53,472 bases of DNA. Origin: an uncultured Prevotellaceae bacterium. Lineage in GTDB: Bacteria > Bacteroidota > Bacteroidia > Bacteroidales > Muribaculaceae. How positions within the stretch are numbered: position 1 is the first letter of the stretch; each line of letters begins with the position of its first letter. Position numbers and translations under genes: made by a program. The DNA lies in assembly GCA_900318335.1 (NCBI GenBank), contig ONKF01000018.1, positions 1-53,472 on the forward strand. Direction: 5' to 3'. Shown piece by piece: positions 31,209 to 38,356 of this stretch. The notes under the pieces were generated by a model that had not been told where the DNA came from, did no database searches, and saw only the letters and a program-made list of their open reading frames with translations.

Positions 31209-33050
31209 TCACTCGAGCGGAAGGATGTTTTTAAAGCTTTTCCAATTCTTTGCACTGCGGTAGGCACTGACCGATGTGGCCGGAACGCGGAGTTCAATCT
31301 TGCTGTTGCTCTCTTTATCGAGCGTCGGGGGCAAGACGGCATGGCTCTCGATGCGCGTCAATTCCTTGCACTTCTCGGCCACTTTCTTGCCCAGATGGGT
31401 AACGCTCTCGGGCAACACGAGAACGGTGATGGCTGTCTCGCGCAGCGCATTATCCCCCAGCGAGGTGACATTGCCCAGCTCAACATGAGCGAGGGCAGTA
31501 CATTCGCGGAAGGCTTCCTTGTCCAACGTCTTGCAGGCTTCGGGCAGTGACACACTGGTCAATCCCCGGCAATTCTTAAAGGCACGTTCGCCAATAGACT
31601 TCAGAGCCGAGGGCAGATCAATGGCCGTCAGGGCCTTGCAACCCTCAAAGGCTTCCTTGCCAATCTCGGTCAGACCGATCGGAAACTCCACATCGGCAAT
31701 AGCCGGGCAGTTTTTGAAAGCCCGCATCGTGATAGTGGTCACCGAGGCAGGCAACTTGACTGACGTCAAACTCCTGCACTCCTCAAACGCCTCTTGAGGA
31801 ATGACCGTGATGTCGGGACTGGTCGTGAAAGACTTGAGTGAGCCACAATGCTTAAAAGCACACTTGCCCATAGCCTTTACTCCAGGCATTTCGGCACGCT
31901 GCAGACGGGAACAGCTTTCAAAGGCGGACTCGCCCACCGATGTCACACTTAAGGGAAGAATAACCGATTCGATGCCACTCTCGGCAAATGCCCTATAGCC
32001 GATTGTGCTGACTGTTGCAGGCATATCGACGGCTGCTATAGCGCTGCCGGCAAATGCGTATTTCCCTATTGTCTCCACACCATCGGGCACCACAGCGACA
32101 CCATTACGTCCTGCAGGATAGAGCAACAGTGCACTACCAGTGTTGTCATAGAGGACCCCGTCCTCATAGGTATAGTAGCGGCTGCCATTCTCGACTCTAA
32201 TTTCCTGTAACTTGGGCATATATCCCAGATAATCGTCGCCGATTCGGGTCGCTGCGGGAAGATCAAGCTCTATGAGTGCCGTTTTGTCAAACGCACCTGA
32301 GCCTAACGAGGTCAATCCGTAGGGCAAAGTGACATGTTGCAGAGCCGTGCCCTTAAATGCCTTTTCGCCTATCTCGAGCACACTACGCGGTATCGTGATG
32401 TTGCGCAGCTTCTCGCAACCCGAAAAACACTCCACACCGATTTCCTGCAAGCCTTCAGGAAGAACGATAAATTCCAGTCGATGGCAGCCCGAAAAAGCAT
32501 CGTTGCCCAATGAGCGTACGCCTGGAGGCATAATGACCTCCTCGAGCTGGCTGCAACCGTGCAGGGCATTGTTGCCGATGCGCTTGAGGCGCTCGGGCAG
32601 GACAATTGAGCGCAGATGGCTGGAATAGGCCAAAGCATCATCGAGCACATCGTGAGAGCCGGTGCTGCCGAAGAGCCCCGATGAGCCCGCACTCATGATG
32701 CGCACGCGTTCCAGTTCCACGTCGATGTAATTGTCCACCGACTTGTCACGGCCATCTACACATCGCGAACGGTCGCAAATCTTTTTCAAGAACTTGAAAT
32801 CCCTGGAATCCATTGGTCCCTCGATGTGCAGGAGCCTCACCTTGTTTACCATTTCAGGTGGCATCTTGGACTCCAGGGTGCCTGGTTCGCTCAACCTGAT
32901 TTCGACCACGTCACCATAGGTGTTAGTGCGGCTATAGCGGTCACGATAGCGCTTGTCTCCACGGCTGCCATACTGGGCTCCAGCGGGCAAAACAGTCACG
33001 ACTGCGAGTAGCATTGCCACTGCCCATTGCAATATGTGCCTTGATTTCAT
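31209..33050 (-). CDS. Secreted BspA-type leucine-rich-repeat protein
   Basis: 613 residues from ATG at 33050; the frame extends 67 codons further but that stretch lacks a signal and spans the promoter at 33082-33112. Signal peptide 1-25 (AVAMLLAVVTVLPAGAQ). Residues about 40-130 are an N-terminal domain with EIRLSEPGTLESKMP that I do not recognise. From about 140 to the end run at least 18 LRR_5 (BspA/TpLRR) repeats of about 23 residues with the IxxxAFxxCxxLxxVxLPxxVxxI pattern. Such proteins are surface or secreted and bind host or matrix proteins. There is no visible sortase or type IX C-terminal domain. Confidence 0.88.
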   Translation of the reverse strand: MKSRHILQWAVAMLLAVVTVLPAGAQYGSRGDKRYRDRYSRTNTYGDVVEIRLSEPGTLESKMPPEMVNKVRLLHIEGPMDSRDFKFLKKICDRSRCVDGRDKSVDNYIDVELERVRIMSAGSSGLFGSTGSHDVLDDALAYSSHLRSIVLPERLKRIGNNALHGCSQLEEVIMPPGVRSLGNDAFSGCHRLEFIVLPEGLQEIGVECFSGCEKLRNITIPRSVLEIGEKAFKGTALQHVTLPYGLTSLGSGAFDKTALIELDLPAATRIGDDYLGYMPKLQEIRVENGSRYYTYEDGVLYDNTGSALLLYPAGRNGVAVVPDGVETIGKYAFAGSAIAAVDMPATVSTIGYRAFAESGIESVILPLSVTSVGESAFESCSRLQRAEMPGVKAMGKCAFKHCGSLKSFTTSPDITVIPQEAFEECRSLTSVKLPASVTTITMRAFKNCPAIADVEFPIGLTEIGKEAFEGCKALTAIDLPSALKSIGERAFKNCRGLTSVSLPEACKTLDKEAFRECTALAHVELGNVTSLGDNALRETAITVLVLPESVTHLGKKVAEKCKELTRIESHAVLPPTLDKESNSKIELRVPATSVSAYRSAKNWKSFKNILPLE

Positions 33051-33081
33051 CTGTTGTCTCCTTATTTTTATTAATTGACTG

Positions 33082-33112
33082 CAAATATATGAAATCCGTC
33101 TGATAGTAGCAA
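33082..33112 (-). promoter_or_regulatory. Putative promoter of the LRR protein gene
   Basis: Minus strand: TTG at 33110-33112 and TATATTTG at 33082-33089, 20 bases apart, about 30 bases before the ATG at 33050. It supports the shorter start. Confidence 0.7.
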
Positions 33113-33261
33113 ATAGGACCCTTTTTCCACTAATGGCCACACGCAGTTTTATTCTGCGCATCAGCCCAAATGCCTGCAGTGAACAATGACTGAACTTGAC
33201 AAGAATCCCAAAAAAATGAGAAATAATTGGCACTTTATTCCATTTATACAAGAAATAGTAT

Positions 33262-36019: not shown

Positions 36020-36090
36020 TTGCAAAAAAGCCACACAAAACTCACCATCAACCCAACACATCCACTGCCCCTGATAGACAACCTTTTCCA

Positions 36091-36150
36091 TGGCGCCAAT
36101 AAAGCGTCCAACGGCGCGGAAAGACGTTGAACGGCGCAAAAAGGGGGAGC
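36091..36150. repeat. Degenerate 20-base tandem repeat, three units
   Basis: Units 36091-36110, 36111-36130 and 36131-36150 each start with NGGCGC, then an A-rich run; the first two end in GCGTCCA and ACGTTGA. No function recognised. Confidence 0.5.
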
Positions 36151-36309
36151 GCACGCACCCCCCAAAATCACACCTTTTCAGTGCTTGTTCAAGTGAATTA
36201 CCCATTAATGACCTTTTTGTTATTTAAATGACTGTAAATCAATCTATTTAATTCCAAGAAATGACCTTCGAATGTTAGCATTTTTCGGTGTTATTTCAAT
36301 AATCGGTTG

Positions 36310-36317
36310 TAACTTTG
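36310..36317 (+). promoter_or_regulatory. Putative serpin promoter -7 element
   Basis: TAACTTTG (TAnnTTTG), 48 bases before the ATG at 36365. The -33 region is T-rich (36280-36286) but without TTG. Confidence 0.6.
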
Positions 36318-36364
36318 CAGACGAGAGTTAACCCGTTTTTATCAACCTGAAAAATTTGACTGAT

Positions 36365-38017
36365 ATGAAACGATTTTGGAAATATGTAATAATACTTACC
36401 ATGGTGCTGATGAGTGGCCTACTAACGTTCGGCCAGGTCAGCGCACCGACCGTAACTCAAGGCAAGATAGCTGAAGGCAACAATGATTTTGCTTGCAACC
36501 TGTTCCGCACCATCTACGAGCAGAAAAAGGGTAGCACCATCGTGTCGCCCATCAGCGTGGGCTATTTGCTAGGCATGCTTAACGAGGGTGCTGATGGCGA
36601 GACTCGCCGGCAGATTACCGATGTACTTAGACTGGGCGGCTCGGTGCAGGAGATCAACAAGTATTTCAAGAAGATGATGGATGATGCCCAATCTATTGAC
36701 CCAAGCGTGACATTAAAAAACGCTAACTGCATCTACTTCAAATTGGGAAAGAGCATCAACCCGAAGTACAAAGCTGACATGCAAAACTATTATGACGCCA
36801 ATGTTGAAGCGATTAACTTCAACTCAAGCAACATTGTGAACAAAATCAACAATTGGAGCAAGACCCATACCGACGGCTTGATACCAGAACTTGTAACCAA
36901 AGGCGAACTTAACCCCCGCGCCGTAATGTATCTGTTGAACGCCGTCTATTTCAAGGCTTCATGGACCGATCAATTTGACCCCTGGAGCACTCGAGACATG
37001 GACTTTATTACGCATGACGGCAAAACCGTTAAGCTACCGATGATGAATCGTGAAGGTATGGCCGCCTACGGCAAGAACGACCTGTGCAAAATGCTGTGCC
37101 TGCCCTACGGCAACAAAGCCTACAGCATGGTTGTGCTGCTCCCCAACGAGGGTAAGACGACCGACGATATCATCCGTAATCTCTCGGCACAAAAACTGAA
37201 GGAGTGGCAGTCACAAATGTGGACAGAGGACGTCGATATCCTGATACCTCGCTTCACTACTGAAAGCGAGACACATCTTGAGGCTATTCTCTCGTCGATG
37301 GGTATGCCACGTGCATTCGGAGGTAACGCTGAGTTCCCCAACATGCTCAAGGGCCATCATGACGACCTGTATGTGTCAATGATGAAGCAGAAGGCTAAAA
37401 TCGAGGTCAACGAAGAGGGAACCAAAGCCGCTGCAGTAACGGTAGCTGAAGAGGTATCAATAGGAATAGTAGAGCACTTTTATAAGTACTTCTACGCTAC
37501 GCGGCCATTTGTATATTACATCATGGAAAAAAGCACTGGCGCCATCTTCTTTATGGGAACCTATTGTTTTGACGATACTGGTGAAACGGTGACCATAAAA
37601 GAACCACTTGAGGAGCCTGAACCAACATTTGGTAGATATGATCTTGTAGTTGAAAAACCTAAGCGAAATGAAAATGATATCTTCAAGTCAGTAGAGCAGA
37701 TGCCTCTATTTCTCGGTGGTGAGGCTGCATTGATAAAGTATATCGACAGTCACATTCAGTATCCTCCCGAAGCTGTCAAAAATAATATTCAGGGACGTGT
37801 GGTTGTTCAGTTTGTTGTTGACAAGACTGGTGAAATTGGCGAAGTAAAGGTCGTCCGCTCGGTGGACAAGGACCTTGACGAGGAGGCCGTTCGCATTGTT
37901 AAGACGCTACCCAAATTCATTCCAGGTCGCCAGAATGGTCAAGCCGTTGCCGTGTGGTATACCCTACCCGTCACGTTCAAATCACCTCGAAAAGGCAATA
38001 AAGGATTGAACAATTAA
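36365..38017 (+). CDS. Secreted serpin fused to a TonB C-terminal domain
   Basis: 550 residues from ATG at 36365 (a TTG at 36356 also reads in frame). Signal peptide 1-23 (VIILTMVLMSGLLTFG, then Q); no lipobox. Residues about 35-405 are a full serpin: GSTIVSPISVGYLLGMLNEGA, the MYLLNAVYFKASWTDQFD breach region, and the hinge NEEGTKAAAVTV (350-360) followed by RPFVYYIMEKSTGAIFFMG. The small-residue hinge fits an inhibitory serpin; counting from G352 as P15 puts P1 near I366, though the loop is about four residues longer than in alpha-1-antitrypsin. Residues about 443-540 are a TonB C-terminal (energy-transducer) domain (FLGGEAALIKYIDSHIQYP, GRVVVQFVVDKTGEIGEVKV, FIPGRQNGQAVAVWYTLPVTF). No TonB-type membrane anchor and no ExbB/D are near. 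Confidence 0.92.
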   Translation: MKRFWKYVIILTMVLMSGLLTFGQVSAPTVTQGKIAEGNNDFACNLFRTIYEQKKGSTIVSPISVGYLLGMLNEGADGETRRQITDVLRLGGSVQEINKYFKKMMDDAQSIDPSVTLKNANCIYFKLGKSINPKYKADMQNYYDANVEAINFNSSNIVNKINNWSKTHTDGLIPELVTKGELNPRAVMYLLNAVYFKASWTDQFDPWSTRDMDFITHDGKTVKLPMMNREGMAAYGKNDLCKMLCLPYGNKAYSMVVLLPNEGKTTDDIIRNLSAQKLKEWQSQMWTEDVDILIPRFTTESETHLEAILSSMGMPRAFGGNAEFPNMLKGHHDDLYVSMMKQKAKIEVNEEGTKAAAVTVAEEVSIGIVEHFYKYFYATRPFVYYIMEKSTGAIFFMGTYCFDDTGETVTIKEPLEEPEPTFGRYDLVVEKPKRNENDIFKSVEQMPLFLGGEAALIKYIDSHIQYPPEAVKNNIQGRVVVQFVVDKTGEIGEVKVVRSVDKDLDEEAVRIVKTLPKFIPGRQNGQAVAVWYTLPVTFKSPRKGNKGLNN

Positions 38018-38079
38018 ACCGATGGTAAACACATCAAAGAAATCGTTTTGATGTAACGCATTTCAATAGGTTCAGTTTC

Positions 38080-38096
38080 ATTTTAGGGCCTAAAAT
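38080..38096. repeat. 17-bp perfect palindrome upstream of the serpin terminator
   Basis: Arms ATTTTAGG and CCTAAAAT around a single G. The word TAACGCAT occurs on both sides (38054 and 38096). Could be an operator or a secondary hairpin. Confidence 0.5.
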
Positions 38097-38103
38097 AACG
38101 CAT

Positions 38104-38136
38104 GAAGCCCGCTGGAATTCAGCGGGTTTTGTTTTT
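38104..38136 (+). terminator. Rho-independent terminator of the serpin gene
   Basis: CCCGCTG / CAGCGGG stem around GAATT (38108-38126) followed by TTTTGTTTTT. Confidence 0.9.
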
Positions 38137-38356
38137 CTGTGCGCCTGATTGAAGTTGAACCGTATAGGGGTAATTCATGTTTTGGGCATTGTGGGAGCGG
38201 CATTATTTTTGCTGGACATCATCTCTTTTATACCCAAATCGGTTGGCAGAAGATGAGAAGCTGACTATGCGTATGGCCACATTAACCCACATCGATGTAG
38301 TGCCTCATTCCCTCATCCGCTTTGATAACGGAGAATTGGGTTGTGGTAGCCTGTGC

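What the first reader, a model, noticed from the sequence alone, without database searches (positions are those of the whole stretch)
36365..38017. Secreted serpin fused to a TonB C-terminal domain
Seen: one uninterrupted 550-residue frame with a signal peptide, a full serpin including a small-residue inhibitory hinge (NEEGTKAAAVTV), and a complete TonB C-terminal domain after a roughly 35-residue linker. Known: serpins trap proteases by inserting the reactive loop; TonB C-terminal domains contact the TonB box or plug of outer-membrane receptors, or in Bacteroidota occur as modules on BlaR/M56-like proteins. Inference: the TonB module could dock the inhibitor on the periplasmic face of an outer-membrane protein, guarding it or the periplasm against proteases. 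I know of no characterised protein with this order.
Basis: partly seen in the sequence, partly recalled or inferred. Interest (0 to 1): 0.78.

Follow-up and report, generated by a model that had tools for sequence, protein, structure and literature searches.

The report
Serpin carrying TonB's docking domain
A gut bacterium of ruminants makes a protease-trapping protein (a serpin) joined to a near copy of the part of TonB that grips outer-membrane transporters, so the inhibitor may be stationed at the cell's nutrient gates; many related species of the same genus have it too, which makes it a real and apparently undescribed protein design.

Summary
Window 36365-38017 is one open frame: signal sequence, full serpin (PF00079, 331 bits, residues 38-400), linker, full TonB_C (PF03544, 80 bits, 463-539; cut-off 24.6). 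It is no artefact: 29 of 101 genomes of the genus hold an in-frame serpin-TonB_C gene (26 main type, 3 a distant lipoprotein type), and the window's genome holds two. No fusion appeared outside the genus in capped samples of family, order and phylum. Plain serpins sampled from family and order have a lipobox in 26 of 27 rows; main fused ones in 0 of 34. The TonB_C is as close to the C-terminal domain of the genus's own TonB (mean 75.1% identity) as to other fused serpins (72.9%), and its model best matches TonB domains, several from receptor complexes. The inhibitory hinge is conserved, the reactive loop hypervariable. TonB's motor-coupling features are missing. Most likely: a periplasmic protease trap docked on outer-membrane transporters through a borrowed TonB domain. 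Docking and inhibition are inferred, not shown. New domain architecture of known families.

The parts
36365..38017 (+). serpin-TonB_C fusion gene, 550 aa (possible TTG start at 36356)
36365..36433 (+). N-terminal hydrophobic signal sequence (residues about 1-23), no lipobox, no His in the hydrophobic segment; cleavage was not predicted by any tool here
36476..37564 (+). serpin domain (residues 38-400)
37412..37501 (+). hinge and reactive centre loop (residues 350-379); conserved hinge, hypervariable loop
37565..37675 (+). linker (residues 401-437); DNA identity to the G289 copy drops here (97% in the 100-base bin before, 70% in the bin from 37565)
37676..37981 (+). TonB C-terminal domain module (residues 438-539; Pfam match 463-539)
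38106..38136 (+). terminator-like hairpin followed by a T-run, read by eye
   Evidence: sequence; not scanned with a tool

Best explanation
It is an exported trap-type serpin that, instead of the lipid anchor of its Bacteroidales relatives, carries a copy of the bacterium's own TonB C-terminal domain. SHOWN by sequence: the architecture, its conservation in the genus, the inhibitory hinge with a hypervariable loop, absence of a lipobox, closeness of the TonB_C to the C-terminal domain of the genus's TonB, absence of TonB's motor-coupling features. INFERRED: the protein stays in the periplasm; its TonB_C pairs with TonB boxes or plugs of TonB-dependent (SusC-type) transporters by strand addition without using energy; the serpin is thereby held at the transporter's inner mouth, where it traps proteases that enter the periplasm or the cell's own proteases on their way out. 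Cleavage of the loop would lock the protease to the docked serpin.
Against: No binding, localisation or inhibition was measured. TonB_C also ends a kinase, proteins with two TonB_C domains and, by eye, an M56-like membrane protein, whose use of it is unknown, so it need not mean transporter docking. 3 of 3 fusions of the second type keep the lipobox, and 9 of 16 plain rows of the genus's main clade were scored without one (8 if L178, which looks like a lipobox by eye, is moved), so anchor loss and TonB_C gain are not strictly tied. The full-length model is poor (mean pLDDT 61.4, pTM 0.45), so the domain arrangement is unknown. Where miropin has His before the hinge strand (alignment; the name shutter histidine is recalled) the window protein has Gln. 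The own assembly (92.9% complete) shows no full-length TonB of the genus type. Cleavage versus membrane anchoring of the N-terminus is open.
Confidence: 0.45

Rival explanations
1. The TonB_C is a general periplasmic adapter or retention module, not a transporter clamp: it binds peptidoglycan, other TonB_C domains or the products of neighbouring TonB_C genes, and keeps the serpin in a periplasmic assembly.
For: 15 of 35 fetched loci with a fused serpin have another TonB_C gene (in 14 of these 15 all on the serpin's strand), against 1 of 14 loci with plain serpins only, and that one (L103) is a split fusion (locus lengths differ and some end at contig ends). TonB_C is appended to unrelated proteins in the family. 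A TonB-like protein with a cell-wall role is known in Anabaena (PMC8262864, abstract).
Against: Main-type serpin TonB_Cs group with the genus's TonB domains, not with the TonB_C domains of the proteins encoded beside them (few columns, modest support).
Confidence: 0.25
2. A protease sensor: cleavage of the loop changes the serpin's shape and with it the availability of the TonB_C, so that protease attack closes, frees or signals through transporters (competition with TonB).
For: Serpins change shape on cleavage (established knowledge); the TonB_C is close enough to real TonB to compete; TonB_C on a kinase and on an M56-like protein (by eye) hints at signalling roles.
Against: A linker of about 37 residues may decouple the domains; none of the 10 neighbouring window proteins scanned is a recognisable regulator of this kind.
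Confidence: 0.12
3. The N-terminal segment is not cleaved: the protein is an inner-membrane TonB-like rod with a serpin in place of the spacer.
For: In several fused relatives the hydrophobic stretch is strong (17-residue means of 2.5-2.85) and followed by a long polar stretch before the serpin.
Against: The window protein has a weaker stretch (mean 2.05) ending LLTFG-QVSA, like a cleavable signal by eye; 37 of 37 lack SxHxLxS and a His in the segment.
Confidence: 0.12
4. Assembly or annotation artefact.
For: Most of these genomes are drafts; some copies are split by frame breaks (L103, L195) or contig ends.
Against: 29 of 101 genomes of the genus, several with two or three different copies, carry in-frame fusions.
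Confidence: 0.01

Closest known systems
Miropin (Tannerella forsythia serpin; PDB 5ncs, 5nct, 5ncu)
   Same: Best sequence match among solved serpins, loop of equal length, similar hinge; Bacteroidales origin (recalled); proposed to prevent damage from secreted serine proteases (PMC4404884, passage)
   Different: No TonB_C. Ksiazek et al., as cited in PMC4604654 (passage), place miropin at the cell surface with a fraction in the periplasm. Plain serpins sampled from family and order mostly have a lipobox, the window protein does not; miropin's own N-terminus was not examined here
TonB of the same genus (frames of 291-297 aa with EWCDLVFEG at the N-terminus; e.g. L108 5041-5922)
   Same: C-terminal domain mean 75.1% identical to main fused serpins, 80.4% between L108 and the window
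   Different: Has a long N-terminus, RHNKAV before a membrane helix and a long charged spacer, and an ExbB gene about 1.5 kb away in the one locus tested with Pfam (L108, PF01618)
Other TonB_C-tailed proteins of Bacteroidota (e.g. G000:C42, 467-aa frame, M56-like by eye; kinase L056)
   Same: TonB_C as a C-terminal module on an unrelated protein
   Different: Membrane or kinase proteins rather than an exported inhibitor
FusB (TonB homologue; PDB 7zc8, 9hi3)
   Different: No serpin; its role in ferredoxin import is recalled, not read

Membership tests
Inhibitory serpin (PF00079) | complete serpin domain and fold | tested here: met
Inhibitory serpin (PF00079) | P17-P8 hinge of small residues | tested here: met
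   EEGTKAAAVT; conserved in 36 main fused sequences; published consensus P17-P9 ExGTEAAAA (PMC8233489, passage)
Inhibitory serpin (PF00079) | covalent trapping of a protease | not testable with these tools
   needs an assay
Lipoprotein serpin of Bacteroidales | lipobox at the N-terminus (a feature of plain serpins sampled here, not a published definition) | tested here: not met
   0 of 34 main-type fusions, window included, by a simple rule
TonB energy transducer | TonB C-terminal domain | tested here: met
TonB energy transducer | N-terminal helix with motor-binding motif (SxHxLxS, PMC12204202 passage; RHNKAV in this genus) | tested here: not met
   0 of 37 fused proteins have SxHxLxS or a His in the segment; 0 of 6 genus TonBs have SxHxLxS either, but 6 of 6 have RHNKAV
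TonB energy transducer | long periplasm-spanning spacer; exbB/exbD nearby | tested here: not met
   linker about 37 residues; no ExbB or ExbD among 10 neighbouring window proteins scanned
TonB-box/plug binder | binds TonB-dependent receptors | not testable with these tools
   similarity only

The most novel reading that the evidence does not exclude
Serpins that mimic TonB: a class of periplasmic protease traps addressed to outer-membrane transporters by a borrowed TonB domain, arisen at least twice in one genus, with serpin and TonB halves able to be exchanged by recombination, possibly gating transport when a protease springs the trap.
Probability: 0.35. Interest if true: 0.8.

Novelty: new variant of a known kind. 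Interest (0 to 1): 0.62.

Why it matters
Few bacterial serpins are characterised and their targets are mostly unknown. A serpin addressed by TonB's own domain would be, as far as my searches show, the first protease inhibitor stationed at transporters, and would suggest that TonB_C can serve as a portable address tag in Bacteroidota, where TonB_C is found on several kinds of protein without an assigned role. One pair of constructs (the serpin's TonB_C against TonB's own domain) makes the question testable.

Tried and rejected
C10 peptidases as genetic partners: the own genome has 24 matches and in L117 a C10 gene lies between the second and third of three fused serpins, but the fetched serpin loci (547 kb) held 6 C10 genes against 4.2 expected from the genome's density, so linkage is rejected. 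Genomes with main fusions have more C10 genes (median 24, n=26, against 9, n=75), but this is not corrected for kinship, and no more than 28 candidates per genome were scored.

Cassette flanked by repeats: window 36070-36168 and 38060-38149 match the other side of the G289 gene, but (repeats of 20 nt or more) found no direct repeat pair flanking the gene, and the upstream piece has one other copy in the genome; read as common intergenic elements.

TonB_C remnants behind plain serpins (loss after fusion): apart from hits of 16-20 residues at E about 0.75, none was found, except behind two copies that are fusions split by frame breaks, L103 and L195; eight of the downstream stretches were shorter than 700 bases, four of them empty.

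The full-length model is too poor to place the domains; only the C-terminal model (pLDDT 83.5) is used for the TonB part. In one search the serpin filled the list; the C-terminal model was therefore searched alone. A plain sequence search of the C-terminal part against solved structures gives TonB chains only weakly (best E=1.8e-4).

A 719-residue serpin frame in G935 was a long open frame with no TonB_C behind the serpin (by eye).

Literature: the searches for serpin with TonB, TonB domain fusions and serpin with rumen and lipoprotein listed no paper on this fusion, judged from titles and starts of abstracts. PMC6434023 (passages) reports a TonB-dependent transporter needed to export a protease in Myxococcus; it is background only.

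Full report
CHECK. The frame 36365-38017 is open for 550 residues and holds a complete serpin and a complete TonB_C, both well above Pfam cut-off. By sequence the nearest solved serpin is miropin of Tannerella forsythia (5ncs, E=5.5e-61), and the loop aligns to miropin's without a gap.

NOT AN ARTEFACT. The same genome (3.15 Mb, 70 contigs, 92.9% complete) has three serpin matches. The second is also serpin-TonB_C (G000:C30, 69% identical over residues 35-547); the third (C36) has no TonB_C and a frame that starts inside the domain. Of 101 genomes of the genus, 56 have a match to the window's serpin part. I fetched stretches around all listed matches with frames of about 490 residues or more and some shorter ones and found in-frame serpin plus TonB_C in 29 of 101 genomes (26 main type, 3 second type). 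In a few copies the TonB_C or the serpin is incomplete (e.g. L096 5757-7457, L116 4923-6410, L101). The number is a lower bound: in L103 and L195 the two parts are split by frame breaks, and some serpins end at contig ends.

DISTRIBUTION. With a second-type fusion as query, 34 of 397 family genomes passed E<=1e-65, all in the same one of 30 genera (three candidates scored). In 393 genomes of the order (50 besides the own with a match at E<=1e-58) and 395 of the phylum (9 besides the own at E<=1e-65), no match outside the genus extended to the TonB_C (none beyond query residue 428). Named relatives are uncultured Bacteroidales, many labelled RUG, others from goat omasum, roe deer abomasum and sheep; that RUG means rumen is recalled. 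The record titles disagree on the family name.

TWO TYPES. In a tree of 100 serpin domains (quick method) the fused rows fall in two distant clades, each on a starred branch of 100. The main clade has 60 rows, 38 fused, with plain lipoprotein serpins of the genus at its base. The second clade (12 rows) has 3 fused (G251, G308, G296) among plain ones; G251's fused serpin is 86% identical to a plain one in G296. The label needs at least 11 changes on the tree (9 forced by starred branches), but some rows count as unfused only because the contig ends or the frame breaks (L014, L106, L193, L090), so the true number is lower. The TonB_C domains of the second type form their own branch (99). Fusion thus most simply happened at least twice; within the second type one gain with losses or several gains cannot be told apart.

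LIPOBOX. By a simple rule, over 89 of the 100 tree rows: main fused 0 of 34; plain in the genus's main clade 7 of 16; second-type clade fused 3 of 3, plain 7 of 9; family plain 11 of 12 (the twelfth, L024, looks like a lipobox by eye); order plain 15 of 15. Eleven rows with a missing N-terminus, a contig end or a frame break were left out. The family and order rows are the best matches to the window protein, not a random sample. Plain rows without a lipobox exist inside the main clade, so loss of the lipid anchor and gain of TonB_C went together only in outline.

ORIGIN OF THE TonB HALF. The genus has TonBs in frames of 291-297 residues with a membrane helix and a charged spacer; in L108 an ExbB gene lies about 1.5 kb away (PF01618, 104 bits), in L107 a similar one is seen by eye, and the other four of the six TonBs compared were recognised by their N-terminal motif alone. 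The 37 main-type serpin TonB_Cs group with these six and nine further TonB_Cs (support 86, not starred; few columns) and are on average 75.1% identical to the six against 72.9% among themselves. The C-terminal strand VWYTLPVTFK is the same in both consensus sequences. The six other genomes with full-length main fusions also list a separate TonB-sized frame matching the TonB_C; the window's own assembly shows no full-length TonB of this kind, perhaps a gap.

MOSAIC. Against the G289 copy the DNA is 97-100% identical in 100-base bins from 36165 to 37564, then 70% in the next bin and 89-95% to 38064, while the flanking sequence is unrelated beyond about 36070 and 38160. The break lies at or near the end of the serpin domain. 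The closest other TonB_C DNA is 91% identical. The two halves can thus have separate histories; a mis-assembly between near copies in these drafts is not excluded.

REACTIVE LOOP. In 36 main fused sequences the hinge is conserved and the loop is the most variable stretch (2.35 bits; best other window 1.58). pN/pS is 0.94 in the loop, 0.20 in the hinge, 0.27 elsewhere (113 pairs at 78% identity or more, not independent, loop alignment uncertain). This fits inhibitors with changing targets; it does not prove positive selection.

NEIGHBOURHOOD. The window gene stands between a DcuA/B-type transporter and a DUF169 gene. Elsewhere 15 of 35 fused loci have other TonB_C genes near, including single and double TonB_C proteins and one kind with a CarboxypepD_reg domain between two TonB_Cs.

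MECHANISM. TonB's C-terminal domain binds the TonB box by adding a strand at beta-3 (PMC11658791, passages). The serpin's copy keeps that fold, and its model's best matches are TonB domains, several from receptor complexes. Without motor-coupling features it should bind passively. A trap held at transporters would meet proteases entering the periplasm, or the cell's own on their way out; miropin has been given a self-protection role (PMC4404884, passage). Docking, location and target remain inference.

VERDICT. Known families in an order for which my searches listed no paper: a new variant of a known kind, real, restricted to one genus in the samples searched, and testable.

Noticed in passing
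G000 whole genome; L197-L216: 24 Peptidase C10 (streptopain-like) matches in the window's genome, most in frames of 440-1200 aa; 99 of 101 genus genomes have some.
   Followed up: partly
L043 4173-9323; L118 4169-7773; L095 3962-8983: Clusters of co-directional TonB_C genes around the fused serpin, including proteins with a Cys-rich N-terminus (HEGDC..CPAC) and, in L095 and L049, two TonB_C domains in one protein; the L049 one has CarboxypepD_reg between them.
   Followed up: partly
L056 4192-5928; L057 5913-7808; L044 4676-6079: TonB_C also ends a Ser/Thr kinase, an otherwise unassigned 630-aa protein (both in other genera of the family), and in the window's genome an M56-like membrane protein, the last named by eye.
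   Followed up: no
L047 5259-6314 (G000:C36): The third serpin of the genome has a frame starting inside the domain and no TonB_C: a broken or mis-assembled copy, left as it is.
   Followed up: no
G000 whole genome: No full-length TonB of the genus type in the window's own assembly, although the other genomes with fusions list a TonB-sized frame.
   Followed up: partly
L117 11129-12793: C10 peptidase with Spi inhibitor domain and Dockerin_1 C-terminus, between two of three fused serpins.
   Followed up: partly
window 36070-36168: Upstream repeat-like element with one more copy in the genome (G000:C5) and copies in the G289 stretch.
   Followed up: partly
window 31209-33251: BspA-type leucine-rich-repeat protein, 680 aa.
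   Followed up: no
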